NCBI RefSeq assembly: GCF_003001935.1
Contig: NZ_PVNG01000024.1
Location: forward strand, 1-64,000
DNA: 64,000 nucleotides
Direction: 5' to 3'
Source: Nonomuraea fuscirosea
GTDB taxonomy: Bacteria > Actinomycetota > Actinomycetes > Streptosporangiales > Streptosporangiaceae
The notes beneath the pieces were generated by a model. It had not been told where the DNA came from. It did not search any database and saw only the letters and a list, made by a program, of their open reading frames with translations. The position numbers were made by a program, and so were the translations under genes. This document shows positions 47,955 to 57,919 of the stretch, in pieces (the stretch's first letter is position 1; every line of letters starts with the position of its first letter).

Positions 47955-48000
47955 CCGGCCGGCGTGCGGCGCGGATCGCCTCGCCGCACGGGCACCTACC

Positions 48001-48106
48001 GGGCGGGCTGACGGGCGCACCGGCCGACGTGTCCGGGTGGGCTGACGGGCGCACGCCGGCTTACGAGTCCGGGTGGGCGGTGGGTCAGCCGGTCGGGCCG
48101 GCGTCC
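48001..48106. repeat. Imperfect ~36-bp tandem repeats
   Basis: Three GC-rich units start at 48001, 48035 and 48071, each opening GGG(C/T)GGGC and ending GTCC. The first two share TGACGGGCGCAC. The last overlaps the end of the small acidic gene. Confidence 0.5.
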
Positions 48107-48362: not shown

Positions 48363-49247
48363 TCAGTCGAGCGCGTCCTCGATCTGGCGGCGGGTCGGCA
48401 TCGAGGTGCTGGCGCCCTCGCGCTGCACCGACAGCGCCGCCGCCACGGAGGCGAAGCGCAGGGCGCGTTCCATGGGCATCCGCTCGGTGCGCGCCACCGC
48501 CAGCGCCCCCACGAACGTGTCGCCGGCCGCCGTCGTGTCCACCGCGTTCACCTTCACCGCCGGCACCCGCAACCGCTCCCCCTCCCGCGACCCGTACAGC
48601 GCCCCCTCGGAGCCCAGCGTGATCACCGCCTCGGGAACCAGCTCCAGCAGCGCGTCCATGGCCTCGTCCGCGCCCGTCACGCCGGTGATGGCGGCGGCCT
48701 CGTGCTCGTTGGGGACGATGGTGGTGACCGCCTCCAGCAGCTCGGCGGGCAGCGGCTGGGCCGGCGCCGGGGTGAGGAAGACGGGCACGCCGGAGACGCG
48801 GGCCGCCTGAGCGGCCCGTACGACCGCCTCCATGGGCAGCTCCAGCTGCAGCAGCAGCGCCCGCGAGCCGGCGATGGCGGCCAGGTCCTCGCCGGTGGGC
48901 CCGGTGACGGTGCCGTTCGCGCCGGGGACGACGATGATCGAGTTGCCGCCGTCGTCGTCCACCACGATGTGCGCGATGCCGCTGGGGCCGGGCACCTGGC
49001 GCAGGCCGCGTACGCCCACCCCGGCCTCTGTCAGCGTGGCGCGCATCTCCGCGCTGAACCCGTCGTCGCCCACCGCCCCCAGGAACGTCACCTCGCCGCC
49101 CGCGCGGGCGGCGGCGATCGCCTGGTTGGCGCCCTTGCCGCCGGGCACGGTGCGGAAGCGGTGCCCGGTGACCGTCTCACCGCGGCGCGGGGCCTGGGAG
49201 ACGTACGCGACGAGATCCATGTTGGCGCTGCCGAAAACCGAGATCAT
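48363..49247 (-). CDS. rbsK: Ribokinase (PfkB family)
   Basis: The 294-residue protein is a ribokinase by motif: GSANMDLVAYV at the N-terminus, TVPGGKGANQAIAAARAG (PfkB signature 1), GPSGIAHIVVDDDGGNSIIVVPGAN (ribose/ATP lid), and VNAVDTTAAGDTFVGALAV (signature 2 with catalytic Asp). It should phosphorylate ribose to ribose 5-phosphate. It is the last gene of the lacI-ABC-glycohydrolase operon; its ATG overlaps the stop of the preceding gene (ATGA). The kinase after four glycohydrolases implies that free ribose, or a ribose-like sugar, is their product. Confidence 0.9.
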   Translation of the reverse strand: MISVFGSANMDLVAYVSQAPRRGETVTGHRFRTVPGGKGANQAIAAARAGGEVTFLGAVGDDGFSAEMRATLTEAGVGVRGLRQVPGPSGIAHIVVDDDGGNSIIVVPGANGTVTGPTGEDLAAIAGSRALLLQLELPMEAVVRAAQAARVSGVPVFLTPAPAQPLPAELLEAVTTIVPNEHEAAAITGVTGADEAMDALLELVPEAVITLGSEGALYGSREGERLRVPAVKVNAVDTTAAGDTFVGALAVARTERMPMERALRFASVAAALSVQREGASTSMPTRRQIEDALD

Positions 49248-50572
49248 GTCCTCATCATCTCCTGTGTCCGCGCCGCCAGCTCGGCCGGACTCACCCCGTC
49301 GAACCCGGTCAGGCTGCTGGCCAGCCTGTCGCGCAGCCGCCAGCGCTCCGGCACGCCGCCGTTCAGCGCGCCCGCGACGGAGCCGGCCGTGGCGCCGGCC
49401 GAGTCGGTGTCCCAGCCGCCCGCCACCGCCCCGGCGATCGTCGCGGTGAAGTCGCCGGCGCCGTGCACCAGGGTCGCCGCGACGAGGGCGGCGTTGTGGA
49501 TCGTGTGCACCCAGTGCAGGTCGCCGTGGCGTTCGTGGAGCAGGTCGACGACGCGTTCGAAGTCGTCCTCGCGGGTGGCGTCCGCCACGGCCAGGCGGAC
49601 CGCCGCGTACAGGCGCGAGCCGCGCGGCACCACGGACAGGCCCGCCCGCACGGCCTCCTCCGCCGAATCGGCCACCAGCGCGGCGGCGCACATCGCGGCC
49701 GCGAACATGGCTCCGTAGATCCCGTTCGCGGTGTGGGTGAGGCGGGCGTCGCGCCAGGCGTACTCGGCGGCCGTGGCGGGGTCGCCCGGGTTGACCCAGC
49801 CGTAGACGTCGGTCCTGATCATCGCGCCGATCCACTCGCGGAACGGGTTGCGGTAGGTGGCGGTGGCCGGCGGCTCGACGCCGTCGAGGAGGTTGCGGTA
49901 CGCGACCCGCTCGGCGGTGAACGTACGGCCCGCGGGCAGCTCGTCCAGCCACAGCTTGGCCACGTCCTCGGTGCCGAAGCCGCGGCCGTGCCGCTCCAGG
50001 ACCGACAGGGCCAGCAGCGGGTAGTTGAGGTCGTCGTCCTCGGGGATGCCGTCCACGTTCTCGGCCAGGGAGTTGACGGCGCTGCGCCGGTTCCACGGCC
50101 AGCGGCGGGCGACGTCGTCCGGCAGGCCCTTCGCGGTGAACCAGCCCTCGATCGGCCAGTTGCCGGTGGCCTCGGCGATCTCCCTGATGCCCGCGCGGGG
50201 GATCTTCTCGACGGGTTTGCCGAGCACGCAGCCGGCCGCGCGGCCCAGCCACGCCCCCAGCACCCGCGCGGGATCCACCTCGGCCCTGGGTCGCCGCCGC
50301 GGCCAGTCGGGGCAGGCGGCGATGATGCCGGCCAGGTCCGACGGCTCGGGCAGCGGGGAGGGGACGGCGGCCAGCTCGTCCAGCAGGTCCTCGGCCAGGC
50401 CGCGCAGCCGGACGGCCCCCGGCTCCGAGGCGCCGGCGCGCGGCGGGGCGTCGTGGCCGCCGGCCGCGTGCCAGTGGGCGGCGATCTCGCTAGCGTCGCG
50501 GCCGTCCTCGGCGGCCTGACGCAGCTCGTGACCGACGAGGTCCTCCGGCTGCACCCAGGTGAGCCGGATCAT
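49244..50572 (-). CDS. ADP-ribosylglycohydrolase-family protein 1 (N-terminal extension)
   Basis: The 442-residue protein has an ADP-ribosylglycohydrolase (DraG/ARH) domain after about 100 extra N-terminal residues. Motifs: LGAWLGRAAGCVLGKPVEKI (105-124), the first metal loop as EDDDLNY (178-184) in place of TDDT, and the second as GGWDTDSAGATAGSVAGAL (385-403). The N-terminal part (WVQPEDLVGHELRQAAEDGRDA) is not a domain I know. Family enzymes cleave N- or O-glycosidic bonds of ribose using two magnesium ions. It overlaps its neighbours by 4 nt at both ends. The substrate is unknown. Confidence 0.85.
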   Translation of the reverse strand: MIRLTWVQPEDLVGHELRQAAEDGRDASEIAAHWHAAGGHDAPPRAGASEPGAVRLRGLAEDLLDELAAVPSPLPEPSDLAGIIAACPDWPRRRPRAEVDPARVLGAWLGRAAGCVLGKPVEKIPRAGIREIAEATGNWPIEGWFTAKGLPDDVARRWPWNRRSAVNSLAENVDGIPEDDDLNYPLLALSVLERHGRGFGTEDVAKLWLDELPAGRTFTAERVAYRNLLDGVEPPATATYRNPFREWIGAMIRTDVYGWVNPGDPATAAEYAWRDARLTHTANGIYGAMFAAAMCAAALVADSAEEAVRAGLSVVPRGSRLYAAVRLAVADATREDDFERVVDLLHERHGDLHWVHTIHNAALVAATLVHGAGDFTATIAGAVAGGWDTDSAGATAGSVAGALNGGVPERWRLRDRLASSLTGFDGVSPAELAARTQEMMRT

Positions 50573-51708
50573 GCGCCGTCGAGCTCGGCGAAGGCGGACT
50601 CGTGGGCGCGGCGGCGGAGCAGGTCGCCCTCGTGCACCCGGCGCGCCACGGCGGCGATGGAGCGCCCCGGAGCCACCAGGTCCGTCCTGCTGGCGGCCGC
50701 CACCTGCTCGACCCACTCCTTCGGCACGCCGTCCAGCCCGCCGAGCGCGCCCGCGATGGCCCCGCCCATGGAGGCGATCGAGTCGGCGTCGCGCCCGTAG
50801 TTGACGCCGCCCAGCACGGTGTCCCGGTAGTCGCCCTTGGCGATCACCAGGAACCCCAGCGCCAGGGGCAGCTCCTCGATGCTGTGCACCCGGCTCGGCC
50901 GCCGCGCGCCCAGGCCCTGGTCACGGTAGGTGTCGGCGACCGTGTCGTACGGCCTGACCGCCGCCCGCAGCGCCTCGAACGAGCCCTCCCAGTGCCCGAG
51001 CCCGGACGCGGCCTCGCACACCGCCTCGATGGCGGCCCTGGTGCCGTCCTTGGCCAGGCGCAGGCAGGCGGCCACCACGGAGTCGGCGGTGGCGCCCGGC
51101 CGCATCGCCTCGGCCACGGCGGCGGCCATCACGCCCGCCGCCTCACGCCCGTAACTGGACTGGTGCGCGCCGGTCAGGTCGACGGCCTCGGCGTAGGCGG
51201 CATCGGGGTCGGCGGCGTTGACGATGCCGACGGGGGCGACGTACATGGCGGCGCCGCAGTTCACGATGTTGCCGACACCGGCCTCGCGCGGGTCGGCGTG
51301 GCCGTAGTGCAGCCTGGCCACGATCCACTTCTCGGCCAGGAAGATCCGCTGCAGCGGCAGCGCCTCGGCCTCCAGCTCGGGGATCCAGCGCCGCTCACCC
51401 ATCAGCTCGGGCACCAGGTGCTCGGCCATGGAGTAGGCGTCCAGGTGGCCGCCGGTCTTCTCGTACACGCGGATGAGGGCGTGCGTCATCAGGGTGTCGT
51501 CGGTGATGTGGCCGTCCCCCTTGTGGTACGGCGCGATGGGCCTGGCGTTGCGCCAGTCCTCGTTGTACGGGGGCACGACGCCCTCGACGCGGCCGCCGTA
51601 CCGTTCGACGATCTGCTCGGAGGTCCAGCCCTCGGTGGCGCCGCCCAGCGCGTCACCGACCGCCGCCCCCGCCACGCAGCCGGTCGCCCTGTCCTCAAGC
51701 GGCGTCAT
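50569..51708 (-). CDS. ADP-ribosylglycohydrolase-family protein 2
   Basis: The 379-residue protein is a standard ARH-fold enzyme: GCVAGAAVGDALGGATEGW (10-28), HITDDTLMTHALI with TDDT at 69-72, and GVNYGRDADSIASMGGAIAGALGG with GRDADS at 305-310. All expected metal ligands are present, so it should be catalytic. Extra sequence between motifs (PYNEDWRNARPIAPYHKGDG, and the aromatic-rich KWIVARLHYGHADPREAG) probably shapes its own substrate pocket. It is coupled to both neighbours by ATGA overlaps. Confidence 0.87.
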   Translation of the reverse strand: MTPLEDRATGCVAGAAVGDALGGATEGWTSEQIVERYGGRVEGVVPPYNEDWRNARPIAPYHKGDGHITDDTLMTHALIRVYEKTGGHLDAYSMAEHLVPELMGERRWIPELEAEALPLQRIFLAEKWIVARLHYGHADPREAGVGNIVNCGAAMYVAPVGIVNAADPDAAYAEAVDLTGAHQSSYGREAAGVMAAAVAEAMRPGATADSVVAACLRLAKDGTRAAIEAVCEAASGLGHWEGSFEALRAAVRPYDTVADTYRDQGLGARRPSRVHSIEELPLALGFLVIAKGDYRDTVLGGVNYGRDADSIASMGGAIAGALGGLDGVPKEWVEQVAAASRTDLVAPGRSIAAVARRVHEGDLLRRRAHESAFAELDGA

Positions 51709-52787
51709 GCGATTCCCTCCAGTAGTTCGATCAGATCTCGGCCCGCCAGGTCAGGCAGGCAACAACCGGCCAGCGTACGGGCCGGGGCGGTCCACCCCTC
51801 CGGGATCGCCCCGTACCCGCCGCAGGCCCCGGTGAGCGCGCCGGTCAGCGCGGGCGCCGAGTCGGCCAGCGGCGCCAGGCAGGCCGCGGCGGGCACGGCC
51901 CTGGTGAGCTCGCCTCCCGCCGCCTCGGCCAGCGCCAGCGCCACGGGCACCGTCTGCGCGGCGCCGACGCCGTAGCTGTAGACGTGGTCGAGCAGCGCGG
52001 CGTCCAGCGCGGGGACGGCGGCGAACGGGTCGCCCGCCTTCCGCGCGACGGACAGCGCCAGGCGGGCGTTGTGCCCGATGGCGGTGTCCGCGGGCAGCCT
52101 GTCCAGTGCCGCCTCGACCGCCGCCGCCACATCCCCCGACATCGACCCTGCCGCCACAGCGGCGGCCATGGCCTGGGCGGCGAGCACTCCGTCGCCCGCG
52201 TTCGTCACCTGCGCGTCCTCGGTGGGGTCCCTCCCCAGGACCCCGAACGCGACGGCTCTGATGGCGGCGGCGTCGTCGAAATGATGGGGATTGTCATGCC
52301 CCGACGCGGGCGGCTCGACACCGTTGGCCAGGTTGTCCAGCGCGGTGGCCACGGAGATGCGCGCCCTGATCGGCGCGGGCGCCCCACCGCTCGGACCGGC
52401 GCCGGGCAGGCCGGAAGGCCGGCCGGCGGCCGGACCGGCGCCCGGCTGACCGGCGGGTTGGCCGGCGCCCGGCGGGCCGGCGCCTGGGCGCGACGGGACG
52501 AGGTCTCTGAACGCCTCCGCCCGTGGCCGGTCGATGGTCAGCAGCGTCCAGGCCAGCCACTCGGCGTCGTCTGACGGCCCGATCCGCAGCGGCGCGACCG
52601 GCTGGTTCAGCGCGAACGGCACCGGCAGCGTGGTCACCTGATGCTCTTCGGCGAAGGCGTCCAGCTCGCGGTGCAGCCGCCGGCTCCAGGGCGCGTGCAG
52701 GGCCGCGCGGTGCCTGGCCGCGGGCCAGCCCACGGCGTCACCGACGGCGAGCCCGGCGACGGCCCCCCTGATTCTGTCCCCCGACAT
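51705..52787 (-). CDS. ADP-ribosylglycohydrolase-family protein 3, altered metal site
   Basis: The 360-residue protein belongs to the same fold: GAVAGLAVGDAVGWP (8-22) and SDDAEWLAWTLL with SDD at 72-74. The second metal loop, GRDADS-like in its neighbours, here reads PLADSAPALTGALTGA (about 305-319), so the first of the two Asp residues is lost. Residues 100-139 are a Gly/Ala/Pro-rich insert encoded by short GC-rich repeats (about 52380-52500). It may have weak or changed activity, or pair with another member. It overlaps the gene 2 start by 4 nt and is 6 bp from gene 4. Confidence 0.78.
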   Translation of the reverse strand: MSGDRIRGAVAGLAVGDAVGWPAARHRAALHAPWSRRLHRELDAFAEEHQVTTLPVPFALNQPVAPLRIGPSDDAEWLAWTLLTIDRPRAEAFRDLVPSRPGAGPPGAGQPAGQPGAGPAAGRPSGLPGAGPSGGAPAPIRARISVATALDNLANGVEPPASGHDNPHHFDDAAAIRAVAFGVLGRDPTEDAQVTNAGDGVLAAQAMAAAVAAGSMSGDVAAAVEAALDRLPADTAIGHNARLALSVARKAGDPFAAVPALDAALLDHVYSYGVGAAQTVPVALALAEAAGGELTRAVPAAACLAPLADSAPALTGALTGACGGYGAIPEGWTAPARTLAGCCLPDLAGRDLIELLEGIA

Positions 52788-52793
52788 GGTGTT

Positions 52794-53765
52794 CTACAGT
52801 CCTTCCGCCAGTTCGTCGGCGACGTCCAGCACATGTCTTCCGGCCACGACGGGCAGGCACTTGCCCGTCACCGGCCCGATCCTGGCGGCCCAGCGGGCCG
52901 GCACGCCGCGCTCTCCCCGCGCGGCCCCGGCCACCGCTCCCGCGATGGCGCCGATCGTGTCGGCGTCCCGGCCCAGGCTCACCCCGAACGTCACGGACGC
53001 CTCCACCTCGCCGCCCCCCGCGAGGAAGGCGGCCAGGGCCAGCGCCACGGCCTCGGGCGCGACGTCGGTCCACGGGTAGTGCCGCACGACGACGGCCCGG
53101 TGCAACGCCTCCACGAGCTCCGAGCCACCCGGATCCGGGAAGGACGCGAGGACGTCACGTACGCGGACGACGTTCCTGGCCGTCCACGAGTCCGCCGGGA
53201 TCACCGCCAGCGCCGCCGCGACCGCCTCGTCCGGCGTGGTCCCGCCCATGGCGGCGGCCACCGCCCCGGCGACCGCCCGGCCGCCGACGATGCCCTCGCC
53301 CGACCCGCTGACCAGCCCGTCCTGTTCGACCAGCCGGGCCGCCTCCGCCGGATCCCCCGGGCAGAAGATCCCGTACGGCGCCGCGCGCATCGCCAGCCCG
53401 TCCGACCAGCCGTGCGCGTGCACGAGCCCGGTCAGCGGCGGCTCCAGCCCCCGGCGAAGCGCTTCGACGGTGCCCAGCTCGGAGAAGCCGGCTCCGCGCA
53501 TGGGCCCGCTCACCCGGGGGATGATCTCCGCCCGGTACGCGGCCGCCACATCGTGCGCGCGAAGGTCGTGCCCGTGACGGACGAGCAGCGAGGCGGCGAA
53601 GATCGCGTACTCGGTGTCGTCGGTGCCGCCGCCCTCGATCTCGGTGAGCCGCCCCCACCGCCGCCGGATCTCGGCCGGCGTGAGGTTCTCGGCCGGGGCC
53701 CCGAGGGCGTCGCCGGCCGCCAGGCCGAGCAGGCACCCCCGGGCCCTGTCCCGCAAGGAAGTCAC
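52794..53765 (-). CDS. ADP-ribosylglycohydrolase-family protein 4
   Basis: The 323-residue protein is the most compact ARH member: GCLLGLAAGDALGAPAENL (10-28), GGGTDDTEYAIF with TDDT at 48-51, and GVSLGRDADTIGAIAGAVAGAARG with GRDADT at 265-270. The full metal set is present. It is the first glycohydrolase after the binding protein; its GTG overlaps that gene's stop (GTGA). By family knowledge it should hydrolyse a ribosyl bond with two magnesium ions; ADP-ribose itself need not be the substrate. Confidence 0.87.
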   Translation of the reverse strand: MTSLRDRARGCLLGLAAGDALGAPAENLTPAEIRRRWGRLTEIEGGGTDDTEYAIFAASLLVRHGHDLRAHDVAAAYRAEIIPRVSGPMRGAGFSELGTVEALRRGLEPPLTGLVHAHGWSDGLAMRAAPYGIFCPGDPAEAARLVEQDGLVSGSGEGIVGGRAVAGAVAAAMGGTTPDEAVAAALAVIPADSWTARNVVRVRDVLASFPDPGGSELVEALHRAVVVRHYPWTDVAPEAVALALAAFLAGGGEVEASVTFGVSLGRDADTIGAIAGAVAGAARGERGVPARWAARIGPVTGKCLPVVAGRHVLDVADELAEGL

Positions 53766-55063
53766 CGCTGGTACCGCTCCAGCACCTTGTTGCCGTCCTC
53801 GACCAGCTTGGTCGCGGCCTGGTCGAGGGTGATCTTGTCGGCGAAGTACTCCTGCAGCGCGGGCGTGGCGACCTTGCTCTTCCACTCGTCGAACCCGTTC
53901 ACCTTCAGGAACGGCGCCACGACGAGGTCCTTGGCGGAGGCGGTGGCCACGTCCCAGCCGTTCTCCTTCGTGGTCATGGCCGGGTCGGCGGCGGCCGTCT
54001 GGGAGGTCGGCAGCAGCCAGTCGCCCTTGGCGAGCTTGGCCTGGTTGGCGCCGTTCAGGAAGAACGAGATGAACTTCATCGCCTCGTCCGGGTGCTCGCT
54101 CTCCTGCGCGATCGACAGCGTCTGCGAGACCGCGCCCTGCTGGGCGCTGGTGCCCTTGGGCGCGGGCAGCGTCACCCACTCGAACCCGTCGGGCGCCTGC
54201 TCGGCGACCTGCTGGCGCAGGTAGACGCCGGTCGGCAGCAGCGCGAACTTGCCCTTGTAGAAGGCGGGCAGCGGGTCCGCGGTGCCCTGGCCGAGCGCGG
54301 CCGGGTCGGCGGACTTGTCCTTGTAGAGCTGGTCGTGGATGCGCTGGAGCACCTCGCGCTCCTCGGGGCCGACCTTGACGGTGGTCTTGCCGCCGGCGGT
54401 CTGGAAGAAGGTGCCGCCGAAGTTGAGCGCCAGGTTGAGCGTCTTGTTGACCGGCGACTTCATCGGCCAGGCCACGCCGAACGTGCCGCCCTTGGTCATC
54501 TTCTTGGCCGCCGCGGAGAACTCGTCCCACGTCCACGGGTCACCCGCGGCGGGGACGCGCACGCCCGAGTCGTCGAGCAGCTTCTTGTTGGCGATGATGA
54601 CCTGCGACTCCTGGAGGAACGGCACGCCGTACACGCCCTGCTCGCCCTTGCCGCCGTCGAAGGTGACGGTGTCCCAGGCGGTCTGCGGGATGTCGCTCTT
54701 CAGCTCGGCGGGCAGCTTGGCACCGAGGTCGAGCAGGTAGCCGTCGGAGGCGAAGCCGGCCAGGGCGGGCGAGTCGTTGTGGATGACGTCGGGCGCGGTG
54801 CCGCCGGCGAACTGGGTGACGAGCTGGTCGTTGACGTTGTCCCAGCTGCCCTGGACGTAGGTGACCTGGATGCCGGGGTTGGCCTTGTTCCACTCGTCCA
54901 CGATCTGCTTGTTCGCGGCGACGGACTCCTTCTGCCAGGCCAGGCTGAGGAAGTCGAGCTTGACGGGCGCGCCGGGCGAGGACGACGACTCGCCGCCGCC
55001 CCCTCCGCACGCGGCGGCGAGCGTGAGGACGGCCGCCGCCGCCAGAGCGGACTTGATTCGCAT
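53762..55063 (-). CDS. CUT1-type sugar ABC transporter substrate-binding lipoprotein
   Basis: The 433-residue protein has a lipoprotein signal (VLTLAAACGGGGG, Cys at about 19) and the family 1 extracellular solute-binding fold: VDEWNKANPGIQVTYVQGSWDNVNDQLVTQFAGGTAPDVIHNDS, GVPFLQESQVIIANKKLLDDSG, DPWTWDEFSAAAKKMTKGG, and HPDEAMKFISFFLNG. It should bind an oligosaccharide or glycoside outside the cell and deliver it to the two permeases upstream. AGGAGG precedes its ATG. Aromatic residues SWDN, WTW and YLRQQ may line the sugar site. The ligand is unknown; the downstream genes suggest a ribosyl compound. Confidence 0.9.
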   Translation of the reverse strand: MRIKSALAAAAVLTLAAACGGGGGESSSSPGAPVKLDFLSLAWQKESVAANKQIVDEWNKANPGIQVTYVQGSWDNVNDQLVTQFAGGTAPDVIHNDSPALAGFASDGYLLDLGAKLPAELKSDIPQTAWDTVTFDGGKGEQGVYGVPFLQESQVIIANKKLLDDSGVRVPAAGDPWTWDEFSAAAKKMTKGGTFGVAWPMKSPVNKTLNLALNFGGTFFQTAGGKTTVKVGPEEREVLQRIHDQLYKDKSADPAALGQGTADPLPAFYKGKFALLPTGVYLRQQVAEQAPDGFEWVTLPAPKGTSAQQGAVSQTLSIAQESEHPDEAMKFISFFLNGANQAKLAKGDWLLPTSQTAAADPAMTTKENGWDVATASAKDLVVAPFLKVNGFDEWKSKVATPALQEYFADKITLDQAATKLVEDGNKVLERYQR

Positions 55064-55073
55064 ATGAGGCCTC

Positions 55074-55892
55074 CTAGCCCTTGACGGCGCCGGCCATCAG
55101 GCCGGACTTCAGTCGCCGCTGGATGATTGCGAAGAAGATCAGGCTGGGGATCGTCGCCATGAGCGACGCCGCGGCCAGCGGCCCGAGCCTGGCCACCCCC
55201 TCGGGGCCGGTGAACCTCACCAGCGTGAGCGGGAGCGTCATGACGTCGGGGTCCTGCAAGATCACGAGGGCGAACATGAACTCGTTCCAGGACGAGATGA
55301 ACGAGAACAGCAGGGTGGCCACCACGCCCGGCGCGAGCAGCGGGGCGACCACGCTGACGATCGAGCGCAGGCGGCTCGCGCCGTCCACCGACGCGGCCTC
55401 CTCCAGCTCGGGCGGCACGGCGCGGACGTACCCCTGCAGCATCCACAGCGCGAACGGCAGCGTGAACGTCACGTGCACCACCACCAGGCCGGGCAGCGTG
55501 TTCACCAGGTCCAGGTCCCGCAGGATCATGAAGAGCGGGATGATGATCAGGATGAACGGGAACACCTGGCTGACCAGCACCCACCCGATCGCGATCTTGT
55601 TGACCAGCCCCCGGTAACGGGCCATGGCGTAGGAGGCGGGCAGCGAGATCACCACGGTGATCACGCTGGCGAACAGCGCCACCACCAGGCTCCGCGCCGC
55701 CGCCCCGACCAGGTCCTGCTCCCCGAACGCGTCGGTGAAGTTGGCCAGCGTGGGCTCGCGCGGGATCCACGTCGGCTCCGTCAGCGCCATCTCCTGGGGC
55801 GTCTTCAGCGCCGTGGACAGCAGCCACAGCAGCGGGAACGCCAGGAAGACGACGTACGCGACCAGCGCCACGTACTGTGAAACGCGTTTCAC
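55074..55892 (-). CDS. CUT1 ABC transporter permease (MalG-like)
   Basis: The 272-residue protein has six membrane segments and the EAA loop LEEAASVDGASRLRSIVSVVAPLLAPGVV that contacts the ATPase. It is the MalG-type partner of the preceding permease. The start is GTG at 55892, coupled to the upstream stop. The first codons form a perfect 16-bp palindrome, GTGAAACGCGTTTCAC (55877-55892). No ATPase gene is present in the operon; actinomycetes often share one (MsiK-type) among CUT1 systems. Confidence 0.9.
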   Translation of the reverse strand: MKRVSQYVALVAYVVFLAFPLLWLLSTALKTPQEMALTEPTWIPREPTLANFTDAFGEQDLVGAAARSLVVALFASVITVVISLPASYAMARYRGLVNKIAIGWVLVSQVFPFILIIIPLFMILRDLDLVNTLPGLVVVHVTFTLPFALWMLQGYVRAVPPELEEAASVDGASRLRSIVSVVAPLLAPGVVATLLFSFISSWNEFMFALVILQDPDVMTLPLTLVRFTGPEGVARLGPLAAASLMATIPSLIFFAIIQRRLKSGLMAGAVKG

Positions 55893-56803
55893 CTGGCCTC
55901 CCTCATCTGCCGCCACAGGTACAGCCCGAGCACCGCGAGCACGACGATCGCCATGGCGAGGCCGAGCATCGAGGCGTAACCGGCCATGCGGTAGCGGAAC
56001 GCCTCCTCGTACGCGAACAGCATCGGCAGCCGCGTGCGCCCTCCCGGCCCGCCCTGCGTGAGCACGTAGACCAGGCCGAACTGGTTAATGTTCCACACGA
56101 AGTCGAGCGAGGTGATCGCCACGATGACCGGCCTGAGCTGCGGCAGCGTGATGCTCCAGAAGCGCCGCCAGGAGCCCGCGCCGTCCATCTCACCGGCCTC
56201 GTAGAGCTCCTTGGGCACGTTCTGCAGGCCCGCGAGCAGCACGACCGTGGTCTGCGGCATGCCCGCCCAGACACCCACCACGATGATCGCGGGCAGGGCG
56301 AGCGAGAAGTCGGCCAGCCAGTTGACGTGCGTGCCGAGCAGGTCGTTCAGTATGCCCGCGTCGGGGTGGTAGACGAGCTTCCACATCAGGCCGATGACCA
56401 CCGGCGGCATCGCCCACGGCACCACCGACAGCACCCGGGCCACGGCCCGGCCGCGCAGCTTCTCGTTGAGCAGCAGCGCCAGGCCGAGCGCGGCGACGAA
56501 CTGCAGCACGGTCACGGAGACGGACCAGATCGCGCCGATCCGGAACGAGGACCAGAACTCGTCGTCGGCCAGCAGCGCGGTGAAGTTCTCCAGGCCGACG
56601 AACTCGGTCTGGTGGACGCGGGTGTTGCGGGCGTCGGTGAAGGCCAGGCCGATGCCGTACAGCAGCGGGCCCATGCTGAACAGCAGCACCGGCACCATCG
56701 CCGGCAGCATCAGCAGCCACATCTCCCGCGTCTTGCGCGAGGGCCCGCGGCGTCTGGCCCGCGACCGCCGGGGCGGCGCCGCTCTCGTCTCGGTGGCCGT
56801 CAC
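55889..56803 (-). CDS. CUT1 ABC transporter permease (MalF-like)
   Basis: The 304-residue protein has an Arg-rich N-terminus, six membrane segments and the EAA loop LYEAGEMDGAGSWRRFWSITLPQLRPVIV. VLQFVAALGLALLLNEKLRGR and GLVYVLTQGGPGG are typical for MalF/UgpA-type permeases. The GTG at 56803 overlaps the lacI stop (GTGA), and its own stop overlaps the next permease. Confidence 0.9.
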   Translation of the reverse strand: MTATETRAAPPRRSRARRRGPSRKTREMWLLMLPAMVPVLLFSMGPLLYGIGLAFTDARNTRVHQTEFVGLENFTALLADDEFWSSFRIGAIWSVSVTVLQFVAALGLALLLNEKLRGRAVARVLSVVPWAMPPVVIGLMWKLVYHPDAGILNDLLGTHVNWLADFSLALPAIIVVGVWAGMPQTTVVLLAGLQNVPKELYEAGEMDGAGSWRRFWSITLPQLRPVIVAITSLDFVWNINQFGLVYVLTQGGPGGRTRLPMLFAYEEAFRYRMAGYASMLGLAMAIVVLAVLGLYLWRQMREAR

Positions 56804-57864
56804 GCGCCGTCCTCCTGCCCGTCCGCGTCCTTTCCGTCGGCGTACTTTCCGCCCGCGTACGCCGGGCCGGCCGTGGAGGCCCGGACCGCGAGGCGGGGCG
56901 GCACGGTGACCAGCCGGGGCTCGCGCTCGCCGCCCTGGAGCCGTTCGAGCAGCAGTTCGGCGGCGGCCTTGCCGCGTTCCGCGGACCCGAGCGAGACGCT
57001 CGTCAGCGACGGCCACGAGGCGGCGGCGAGGTCGGTGTCGTCCATGCCGACCACGGCCACGTCCTGGGGCACCCGCCGGCCCAAGGCGCGCAGCACGTCG
57101 AGCGCGCCGAGCGCGATCAGGTCGTTGGCGCACATCAGCGCGTCGATGTCGGGCCTGGCGGCGAGCAGTCCGGCCACCGCGCGGGCACCGTCGGCGCGGT
57201 AGAAGTCGCCGATGCGGACGAGGTCCTCGTCGTAGGGCAGGCCGAGGTCTCCCAGCGCCTCCCGGTACGCGGCGCCGCGGGCGGCGCCGGGCACGGTGTC
57301 GAGCGGGCCGTTGACCAGGGCGATGCGGCGGCGGCCGAGCGCGTGGAGGTGGTCGAGCGCCAGCCTGACGCCGGTGCGCGAGTCGGCCCGTACGTTGTCG
57401 ACGGGGGTGCCCTCGGGCACCGAGCCGATGATCACGACGGGGGCCCTGGCCGCGGCCAGCATCTGCAGATGGGCGTCGGTGACCCGCAGCGGAACCATGA
57501 TCAGCCCGTCCACGTAGCGCTCACCGAGGCTGTGCAGCACGGCGATCTCGTCCTCCACCACCGCGTCGGTCGAGTGCAGCACGAGCCGGTATCCGGCGGC
57601 CTTCAGCACCGGCTGGATCTCGCGCAGCATGGCCAGGTAGGCGGGGTTGCCGACGTCGGCCATGGCGAAGGCGACCTGGTGGGTGCGGCGCGACTTGAGG
57701 GATCTGGCCACGGCGTTGCGCACGTAACCGAGCTCGTCCGCGGCGGCCATCACCTTGCGCACGGTCTCCTGCCTGGTCGGCAGGCCGTTGAGGACCCGCG
57801 ATACGGAGGCGATCGAGACACCGGCGCGCTCGGCGATCGTGTTGATCGTGGGTCCGTCGGCCAA
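56800..57864 (-). CDS. LacI-family transcriptional regulator
   Basis: The 354-residue protein has a LacI helix-turn-helix and hinge (TINTIAERAGVSIASVSRVLNGLPTRQETVRKVMAAADELGYVRNAVARSLKSRR, residues 6-60) and a sugar-binding-like effector domain (VDGLIMVPLRV, ALVNGPLDTVPGAARGAAYREAL, DALMCANDLIALGALDVLRALG, VVGMDDTDLAAASWPSLTSV). The start is TTG at 57864 with GGAAGGA upstream. It is the first gene of the operon and faces two perfect boxes, so it should repress its own transcript until the imported ligand binds. The Gly/Asp/Ala-rich end (YAGGKYADGKDADG) is unusual. Confidence 0.9.
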   Translation of the reverse strand: MADGPTINTIAERAGVSIASVSRVLNGLPTRQETVRKVMAAADELGYVRNAVARSLKSRRTHQVAFAMADVGNPAYLAMLREIQPVLKAAGYRLVLHSTDAVVEDEIAVLHSLGERYVDGLIMVPLRVTDAHLQMLAAARAPVVIIGSVPEGTPVDNVRADSRTGVRLALDHLHALGRRRIALVNGPLDTVPGAARGAAYREALGDLGLPYDEDLVRIGDFYRADGARAVAGLLAARPDIDALMCANDLIALGALDVLRALGRRVPQDVAVVGMDDTDLAAASWPSLTSVSLGSAERGKAAAELLLERLQGGEREPRLVTVPPRLAVRASTAGPAYAGGKYADGKDADGQEDGA

Positions 57865-57883
57865 GGCTGTCCTTCCATCGTGA

Positions 57884-57919
57884 GTAAACGTTTACGGCCA
57901 TCCGTCTGTAAACGTTTAC
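57884..57919. promoter_or_regulatory. Two LacI operators
   Basis: The perfect 12-bp palindrome GTAAACGTTTAC occurs at 57884-57895 and again at 57908-57919, 24 bp centre to centre, about 20 bp upstream of the lacI start. The same-face spacing (just over two helical turns) suits cooperative binding. Confidence 0.85.

What the first reader, a model, noticed from the sequence alone, without database searches (positions are those of the whole stretch)
48363..57919. LacI-ABC transporter operon with four different ADP-ribosylglycohydrolase-family proteins and a ribokinase
The sequence shows nine minus-strand genes, mostly joined by 4-nt stop/start overlaps: lacI, two CUT1 permeases, a solute-binding lipoprotein, four ARH-fold proteins of different length and pocket sequence, and ribokinase. 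By family knowledge ARH enzymes cut ribosyl bonds and ribokinase takes the freed ribose. I infer a catabolic pathway for an imported ribosylated molecule (a nucleoside derivative, ribosyl-amino acid, ADP-ribosyl fragment or ribose-containing glycoside), in which the four hydrolases act on successive bonds or related substrates. I know of no described pathway with this make-up.
Basis: partly seen in the sequence, partly recalled or inferred. Interest (0 to 1): 0.78.

Follow-up and report, generated by a model that had tools for sequence, protein, structure and literature searches.

The report
Four-hydrolase sugar-breakdown regulon in actinobacteria
A soil actinobacterium carries a regulated gene set that most likely imports and dismantles an unknown sugar compound using four cousins of enzymes known for removing ADP-ribose from proteins, which suggests that some so-called ADP-ribose enzymes in these bacteria may really be digestive enzymes.

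Summary
Confirmed: nine minus-strand genes (48363-57864) encode LacI, two CUT1 permeases, a binding lipoprotein, four different PF03747 (ARH-fold) proteins and a ribokinase. The set is old: all four ARHs lie together in 74 of 75 of the best-matching named loci with enough upstream sequence. In 39 of 42 such Streptomyces loci the importer is not adjacent, but it sits elsewhere in 6 of 6 genomes tested. ARH1, ARH3 and ARH4 keep the catalytic residues; ARH2 lacks one metal Asp clade-wide and, in the operons, the Glu. Best reading: a catabolic regulon for an esterified furanoside, most simply a riboside, with an acid part for CoA chemistry. Nucleosides are less likely; protein de-ADP-ribosylation is unlikely. 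Every reaction and the substrate are inferred.

The parts
57908..57919 (.). LacI-type operator, distal copy, GTAAACGTTTAC
   Evidence: Exact palindrome; exact core upstream of lacI in 45 of 57 loci read, window included; only 3 exact sites in the whole genome.
57884..57895 (.). LacI-type operator, proximal copy, GTAAACGTTTAC
   Evidence: Exact palindrome; 24 bp from the distal copy; 19 bp lie between it and the lacI start codon.
56800..57864 (-). lacI-family regulator (354 aa, TTG start)
   Evidence: PF00356 and PF13377; no NCBIfam cut-off reached.
55889..56803 (-). CUT1-type permease 1 (304 aa)
   Evidence: PF00528; MalF/UgpA-like but below cut-offs.
55074..55892 (-). CUT1-type permease 2 (272 aa)
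   Evidence: PF00528; GlcU/MalG-like but below cut-offs.
53762..55063 (-). Solute-binding lipoprotein (433 aa)
   Evidence: PF01547/PF13416; closest solved chain Lmo0181, 5f7v, E 1.6e-27.
52794..53765 (-). ARH1: ARH-fold hydrolase with canonical Glu, TDDT and DxDT residues (323 aa)
   Evidence: PF03747 185.8 bits; all eight key positions invariant in 96 of 96 loci at 45% identity or more.
51705..52787 (-). ARH2: ARH-fold protein lacking the catalytic Glu and one metal Asp (360 aa)
   Evidence: PF03747 73 bits, partial; D314-equivalent is L/V/T/A in 91 of 91 read (94 loci), second Asp kept in 90 of 91; Glu position never E in 78 read of 94; model of low to middling confidence matches ARH3/DraG structures.
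50569..51708 (-). ARH3: ARH-fold hydrolase, DxDS metal motif (379 aa)
   Evidence: PF03747 168 bits; metal residues invariant in 101 of 101 loci, Glu in 100 with one unread.
49244..50572 (-). ARH4: ARH-fold hydrolase with ~100-aa N-terminal extension, EDDD and DxDS motifs (442 aa)
   Evidence: PF03747 171 bits; Glu and Asp positions invariant in 105 of 105 loci; model pLDDT 87.7 matches DraG, MJ1187 and ARH3.
48363..49247 (-). rbsK, PfkB-family ribokinase (294 aa)
   Evidence: TIGR02152 above cut-off; all 16 solved sequences listed at E 1e-25 or lower are named ribokinase.

Best explanation
The window holds the core of a sugar-catabolic regulon. LacI represses the operon, and in about half of the Nonomuraea genomes searched also a secreted esterase gene, through GTAAACGTTTAC sites. 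The esterase trims or releases an acylated glycoside outside the cell; the CUT1 importer brings the glycoside in; the ARH-fold enzymes (ARH1 with its companion ARH2, then ARH3 and ARH4) act as metal-dependent furanosidases; the freed pentose, most simply ribose, goes to ribokinase. In many relatives a CoA-transferase and a CitE-like lyase then activate and cleave a hydroxy-acid part of the same molecule. Shown here: gene content, co-conservation, shared operator sequence, retained or lost catalytic residues. Inferred: repression, every reaction, the sugar, the acid and the order of steps.
For: Four ARHs together in 74 of 75 loci with at least 4.5 kb upstream, in separate deep clades, so not recent duplicates. 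In Streptomyces the cassette is detached from the importer, yet perm1-perm2-SBP relatives stay together elsewhere in 6 of 6 genomes tested. An exact operator lies before the secreted esterase gene in 25 of 25 genomes that have it, 24 of them not used to find it; in Jiangella muralis the esterase homologue is divergent from lacI and GGAAACGTTTCC lies before both. CaiB plus CitE follow in 54 of 76 loci and also close the shorter operons L048, L051 and L052. ARH4-type genes share LacI-CUT1 operons with a ribokinase in a Mycolicibacterium and a Deinococcus plasmid. Catalytic residues intact in ARH1, ARH3 and ARH4.
Against: No ligand or reaction is known. No part outside the ARHs is universal: no RbsK match beside the cassette in 22 of 76 loci, no CaiB/CitE in 22 of 76 (all Nonomuraea loci long enough to tell), no esterase in 29 of 54 Nonomuraea genomes. 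Of the 54 loci with CaiB/CitE, 46 are Streptomyces and so one ancestral arrangement. The window genome's nearest CaiB/CitE pair (66% and 54%) looks like a paralogue pair beside a TRAP permease. Genome G064 has an 81% CaiB but no ARH4 match. The CoA-transferase and lyase are below every NCBIfam cut-off, so the acid is a guess. No characterised ARH is known to me that cleaves a simple riboside (recalled).
Confidence: 0.5

Rival explanations
1. Nucleoside or NAD-derivative salvage: the importer brings in a nucleoside-like molecule and the ARHs act as nucleosidases, with ribose going to ribokinase (within the first reader's range).
For: E. coli yegTUV combines a predicted nucleoside symporter, an ARH and a PfkB kinase; an ARH4-like gene in L054 is followed, one gene later, by an IUNH-family nucleoside hydrolase gene; RbsK in 54 of 76 loci.
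Against: The permeases and binding protein match oligosaccharide, glucose and glycerol-phosphate importer models best, all below cut-offs; an esterase with the same operator and a CoA-transferase/CitE pair do not fit plain nucleosides. I did not search the relatives systematically for base-catabolism genes.
Confidence: 0.2
2. The ARHs cut a furanoside other than a riboside, for example a D-arabinofuranosyl or apiosyl glycoside, and the kinase takes a different pentose or is an accessory.
For: CUT1 importer; no RbsK match in 22 of 76 loci; a fusion protein with an FGE-like domain beside ARH3-ARH4 in L048, L049, L051, L052, L114 and L115 and beside ARH4 in L050; a GH43 gene next to the ARH1/ARH2-like pair in L056.
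Against: The kinase passes the ribokinase equivalog cut-off; characterised ARHs act on ribofuranosyl groups (recalled).
Confidence: 0.2
3. The ARHs reverse protein or nucleic-acid ADP-ribosylation and their operon position is incidental.
For: Family membership; S. coelicolor SCO2028-SCO2030 were listed among putative ADP-ribosyl protein hydrolases (PMC5087735, passages seen), though I could not confirm that these are this cassette.
Against: Packed in one unit with a sugar importer and kinase; that paper predicts only one potential transferase in S. coelicolor, absent from most other Streptomyces; scores far below the DraG (70.4 against 337) and Tri1 (54.1 against 490) cut-offs.
Confidence: 0.04
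4. Sub-question: ARH2 is not an enzyme but a partner or regulator of ARH1.
For: One metal Asp is lost across the clade (Q in 5 of 5 stand-alone loci, L/V/T/A in 91 of 91 read in operons); operon ARH2 also lacks the Glu (78 of 78 read); it lies beside ARH1 in 74 of 75 loci long enough to tell.
Against: The DD pair, the second Asp and many other residues are strictly conserved; three of four stand-alone ARH2-like proteins read at that position still have the Glu (L056, L057, L060); L118 has ARH2 with no ARH1 match.
Confidence: 0.4

Closest known systems
E. coli yegTUV (GgaR/YegW-controlled transporter, ARH, PfkB kinase)
   Same: Transport gene, one ARH-family gene and one PfkB kinase in an operon with a local repressor.
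   Different: MFS symporter instead of CUT1, one ARH instead of four, GntR-type regulator; its function is itself unproven, with a proposed link to ADP-glucose and glycogen (PMC10819704, passages seen).
DraG / ARH1 / ARH3 ADP-ribosyl hydrolases
   Same: Fold and, in three of four, the metal-site and Glu residues.
   Different: About 17% identity of ARH4 to DraG in the structural match, scores far below the DraG and Tri1 cut-offs, sugar-operon context.
LacI-CUT1 sugar-utilisation operons of actinobacteria
   Same: Local LacI gene, palindromic operator, two permeases and a binding lipoprotein, no ATPase gene in the operon.
   Different: Four ARH-fold proteins where glycoside hydrolases are usual (recalled).
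Family III CoA-transferase plus CitE-like lyase pathways (itaconate, citramalate, hydroxymethylglutarate)
   Same: Adjacent CaiB-type and CitE-type genes in relatives.
   Different: Scores below every cut-off; attached to a glycoside cassette; no hydratase gene noticed in the few loci read gene by gene, not searched for.

Membership tests
ADP-ribosylglycohydrolase superfamily (PF03747) | Profile match above cut-off | tested here: met
   Four of four above 26.2 bits.
ADP-ribosylglycohydrolase superfamily (PF03747) | Catalytic Glu and the two Asp pairs of the dinuclear metal site (roles recalled) | tested here: inconclusive
   Met by ARH1, ARH3 and ARH4; not met by ARH2, which lacks the Glu and one Asp.
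DraG (TIGR02662) | Score at or above 337.05 | tested here: not met
   Best is ARH1 with 70.4 bits.
ADP-ribosylarginine hydrolase Tri1 (NF041672) | Score at or above 490 | tested here: not met
   Best is ARH3 with 54.1 bits.
Bacterial ribokinase (TIGR02152) | Score at or above 299.65 | tested here: met
   310.3 bits; the other ribokinase model, NF008353, is not reached (271.3 against 341).
CUT1 ABC importer | Two MalF/MalG-type permeases and a family 1 binding protein | tested here: met
   PF00528 twice and PF01547.
LacI-regulated operon | Regulator gene with a conserved palindromic operator upstream | tested here: met
   binding itself not testable here.
Itaconate/citramalate lyase RipC (NF038242) | Score at or above 375 | tested here: not met
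   139.2 bits for the CitE-like protein of L104.
ADP-ribosyl hydrolase in the functional sense | Release of ADP-ribose from a modified molecule | not testable with these tools
   Needs an enzyme assay.

The most novel reading that the evidence does not exclude
ARH-fold proteins of this kind are a previously unrecognised class of intracellular, metal-dependent furanosidases: a two-module set (ARH1+ARH2 and ARH3+ARH4) takes apart an ester-decorated ribofuranoside or similar furanoside whose acid part is finished by a CoA-transferase and a CitE-like lyase, and a good share of the 'DraG homologues' of Streptomyces and relatives are digestive enzymes, not erasers of ADP-ribosylation.
Probability: 0.4. 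Interest if true: 0.82.

Novelty: new variant of a known kind. Interest (0 to 1): 0.66.

Why it matters
ARH-family proteins are usually read as erasers of ADP-ribosylation. One study of Streptomyces coelicolor listed seven uncharacterised DraG homologues but only one potential transferase, absent from most other Streptomyces, and took the hydrolases as a sign of lively ADP-ribosylation (PMC5087735, passages seen). A widely conserved cassette that puts four ARHs in a sugar operon offers another answer that can be tested directly, and the operator, the binding protein and the secreted esterase give three handles on the unknown substrate.

Tried and rejected
Considered and rejected: recent tandem duplication of one ARH (rejected by separate deep clades); decay of ARH2 (rejected: many invariant residues, and a clade-wide change); chance operator match before the esterase (rejected by 24 further genomes, and by Jiangella); the pair on contig 25 as the moved CaiB-CitE of this operon (doubtful: genomes G082 and G134 hold both an operonic copy at 83-85% and a second at 68-70%). 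In that search 70 of 150 genomes have a CaiB match at E 1e-110 or lower, more than have the cassette.

I lowered the ARH2-as-partner odds from 0.45 to 0.40 for this; no other odds changed.

Led nowhere: ten paper searches, of which I saw listings and starts of abstracts; passages were seen in four papers (PMC13432705, PMC10819704, PMC12772271, PMC5087735), and the first and third say nothing on these genes in the passages shown. The first half of the fusion protein has no Pfam or NCBIfam match. The Subdoligranulum and Nonomuraea gerenzanensis records carry no annotation here; the Halostella hit was not opened.
Full report
Observation. The window is the start of contig 24 of a 12.18-Mb assembly; its closest named relatives are Nonomuraea. 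Between 48363 and 57864 nine minus-strand genes are packed as one likely transcription unit: lacI, two CUT1 permeases, a binding lipoprotein, four ARH-family genes and rbsK. Six of eight junctions are 4-nt overlaps; the other two are 10- and 6-nt gaps. No ATPase gene is among the nine; a shared MsiK-type ATPase is the usual solution in actinobacteria (recalled). Two exact copies of GTAAACGTTTAC lie 24 bp apart just upstream of lacI.

Conservation. Of 150 genomes of the order, 54 have an ARH4 match at E 0.001 or lower. ARH4 matches at 1e-80 or lower are in 47 and permease 2 matches at 1e-75 or lower in 46 of the same 150; 46 are shared, the odd one being a 77% complete genome. For G002 and G013 the ARH4 match so counted is a distant 46-47% relative; G013 also has operon pieces on another contig. 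These genes mostly share one operon, so this shows linkage more than function. Four ARHs in one orientation: 74 of 75 loci with at least 4.5 kb upstream; the exception, L118, lacks an ARH1 match. With at least 4 kb downstream, RbsK is found in 54 of 76 (27 of 46 Streptomyces, 27 of 30 others) and CaiB plus CitE in 54 of 76 (46 of 46 Streptomyces, 8 of 30 others). With at least 8.5 kb upstream, LacI and the full importer are found in 34 of 73 (3 of 42 Streptomyces, 31 of 31 others) (the split by genus is counted). The 46 Streptomyces loci are not independent of each other.

Rearrangement as a test. In three Streptomyces loci read gene by gene (L103, L104, L126) the block ARH1-ARH2-ARH3-ARH4-(RbsK)-CaiB-CitE lies upstream of genes that I read as lgt and trp, with glutamate-synthase-like or VIT-like genes on the other side in L103 and L126. 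In 6 of 6 Streptomyces genomes tested, a permease 2 relative of 61-64% identity (next best listed, 45%) sits elsewhere between permease 1 and binding-protein relatives; no lacI match or operator was found in the 15-16 kb read there. Cassette and importer thus stay in the same genome even when apart on the chromosome.

Modules. L048 and L051 read LacI-perm-perm-SBP-ARH3-ARH4-fusion protein-CaiB-CitE, and L052 the same from SBP on, where its contig begins; L049 has no CaiB or CitE match in the 4.4 kb held, and L050 has ARH4 and the fusion protein without ARH3, LacI, CaiB or CitE matches. In L056-L060 an ARH1-like and an ARH2-like gene lie together, divergent from LacI and CUT1 genes, without ARH3 or ARH4 matches. 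A tree of 43 sequences gives each of the four operon ARHs a clade of its own (98/97 to 100/100) and puts the second gene of the L056-L060 pairs with ARH2 (100/99); their first genes form a separate clade in a weakly supported group with ARH1 and ARH2 (82/56). The tool warned of long branches for E. coli YegU and the window genome's contig 14 ARH. The Jiangella clusters L114 and L115 hold every part: LacI, permeases, SBP, ARH1-4, RbsK, fusion protein, CaiB and CitE.

Catalytic residues. Positions were set by alignment to solved ARH3 (the residue names E41, D77, D78, D314, D316 and T317 are recalled). ARH1 keeps all eight positions checked in 96 of 96 loci. ARH3 keeps them in 101 of 101 except one unread Glu, with Ser for T317. 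ARH4 keeps the Glu and Asp positions in 105 of 105, with Ser for T317 and Asp for the last Thr of TDDT; the residue before the DD varies in 4. Operon ARH2 has A, G, S, T, Q or R at the Glu position in 78 of 78 read (94 loci) and L, V, T or A for D314 in 91 of 91 read; it keeps the second Asp in 90 of 91, Ser in 91 of 91 and the DD pair in 78 of 78 read (three ARH2 positions were mis-set and redone). In the five stand-alone ARH2-like proteins the lost Asp is Gln, but three of the four read at the Glu position keep the Glu. The ARH2 model is of middling confidence (pLDDT 73; most of residues 22-68 below 50) and its best solved matches are ARH3 structures at E 4e-4. The ARH4 model is good (87.7) and matches DraG, MJ1187 and ARH3.

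Regulon. The exact operator occurs three times in the 12.18-Mb genome: twice here and once at contig 2, 507845-507856, 11 bp before the start codon of a 702-residue protein with a signal-like N-terminus (my reading), a PF00756 esterase domain and SBBP beta-propeller repeats. Solved relatives of the first domain include ferulic acid esterases; no NCBIfam cut-off is reached. In the genus, 25 of 54 genomes have this protein at E 1e-60 or lower. In 25 of 25 an exact GTAAACGTTTAC begins 11-41 bp before the first matched base (L185 and L186 placed by hand at -25 from the printed positions). In L182 the match begins only at residue 74, and in G130, G169 and G184 the gene is in two pieces. The operator occurs in 53 of 54 genomes, one to four times each, and the reversed pattern in none (the printed list of places was cut). 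Upstream of lacI, 45 of 57 loci carry the exact core, four carry GGAAACGTTTCC, three a mixed form and five none by this scan (some genomes are present twice). In Jiangella muralis (L114) an esterase homologue of 51% identity is divergent from lacI, with GGAAACGTTTCC before it and another, plus GGAAACGGTTCC, before lacI. L115 begins 182 bp before lacI and cannot tell. No other cassette locus has the esterase within reach.

CoA genes. The CoA-transferase is closest to succinate-glutarate and formyl-CoA transferase models and the lyase to RipC and CitE, all well below cut-off. In the window's genome the nearest pair is on contig 25 (66% and 54%), beside a GntR gene and a TRAP DctM permease. Other genomes hold both this form and the operonic form (G082, G134), so I treat it as a paralogue, which may or may not serve the same pathway.

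Wider context. ARH4-type matches are in 5 plasmid-collection records. In the two annotated ones, from Mycolicibacterium arabiense and Deinococcus aetherius, the gene lies in a LacI-CUT1 operon with a ribokinase; the Deinococcus operon has a second ARH gene whose C-terminal half has no Pfam match. E. coli yegTUV pairs one ARH with a PfkB kinase. PMC5087735 lists SCO2028, SCO2029 and SCO2030 among seven uncharacterised DraG homologues; from the consecutive numbers and recalled gene positions I infer that these belong to this cassette, but I could not check that genome.

Judgement. A conserved sugar-catabolic unit is well supported, and the shared operator makes the esterase a strong candidate member of its regulon. 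That ARH1, ARH3 and ARH4 are active metal-dependent hydrolases is likely. Ribose as a product is probable but not certain, because the ribokinase is not universal. The esterase and the CoA genes argue for an acylated, hydroxy-acid-bearing furanoside over nucleosides or ADP-ribosyl fragments; this step is inference from gene families. Nothing listed in ten searches of an open-licence library describes the system.

Noticed in passing
window 52388-52484: The window's ARH2 carries a G/P/A-rich insert of about 38 residues (roughly 101-139), absent in the other 16 aligned orthologues and overlapping short tandem repeats.
   Followed up: partly
L050 2035-4068, L052 3867-5918, and within L048 12112-15258: A ~680-residue protein with an unassigned N-terminal half that reads like a TIM barrel (my reading) and a C-terminal FGE-sulfatase-like domain sits next to ARH4.
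   Followed up: partly
L054 296-15402: A distant ARH4-like gene lies with CUT1 genes, a ROK-like regulator (my reading), an IUNH nucleoside hydrolase, a xylose-isomerase-like TIM-barrel gene and a GH36 gene.
   Followed up: partly
L118: A Streptomyces locus with 9.2 kb upstream has ARH2, ARH3 and ARH4 but no ARH1 match.
   Followed up: no
L089: In [Actinomadura] parvosata the ARH3 and ARH4 matches are broken into several overlapping pieces, as frameshifts or sequencing errors would give.
   Followed up: no
L086: Thermoactinospora rubra shows two successive ARH1 matches (78% and 81%) before ARH2, a split or duplicated gene.
   Followed up: no
L154 6384-10710 (G000 contig 25): A GntR gene, a CoA-transferase, a CitE-like lyase and a TRAP DctM permease form a likely separate hydroxy-acid locus in the window's genome.
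   Followed up: partly
L161 7323-8378 (G000 contig 14): A further ARH gene of the window's genome follows genes that read like a second sugar ABC transporter of another type, with a GntR-like regulator upstream (transporter and regulator by my reading).
   Followed up: no
L182; L188/L195, L191/L194, L192/L193: In one Nonomuraea genome the operator lies directly before residue 74 of the esterase match, and in three genomes the esterase gene is in two pieces.
   Followed up: no
window 48000-48078: A short tandem repeat of period 36 lies downstream of the operon.
   Followed up: no
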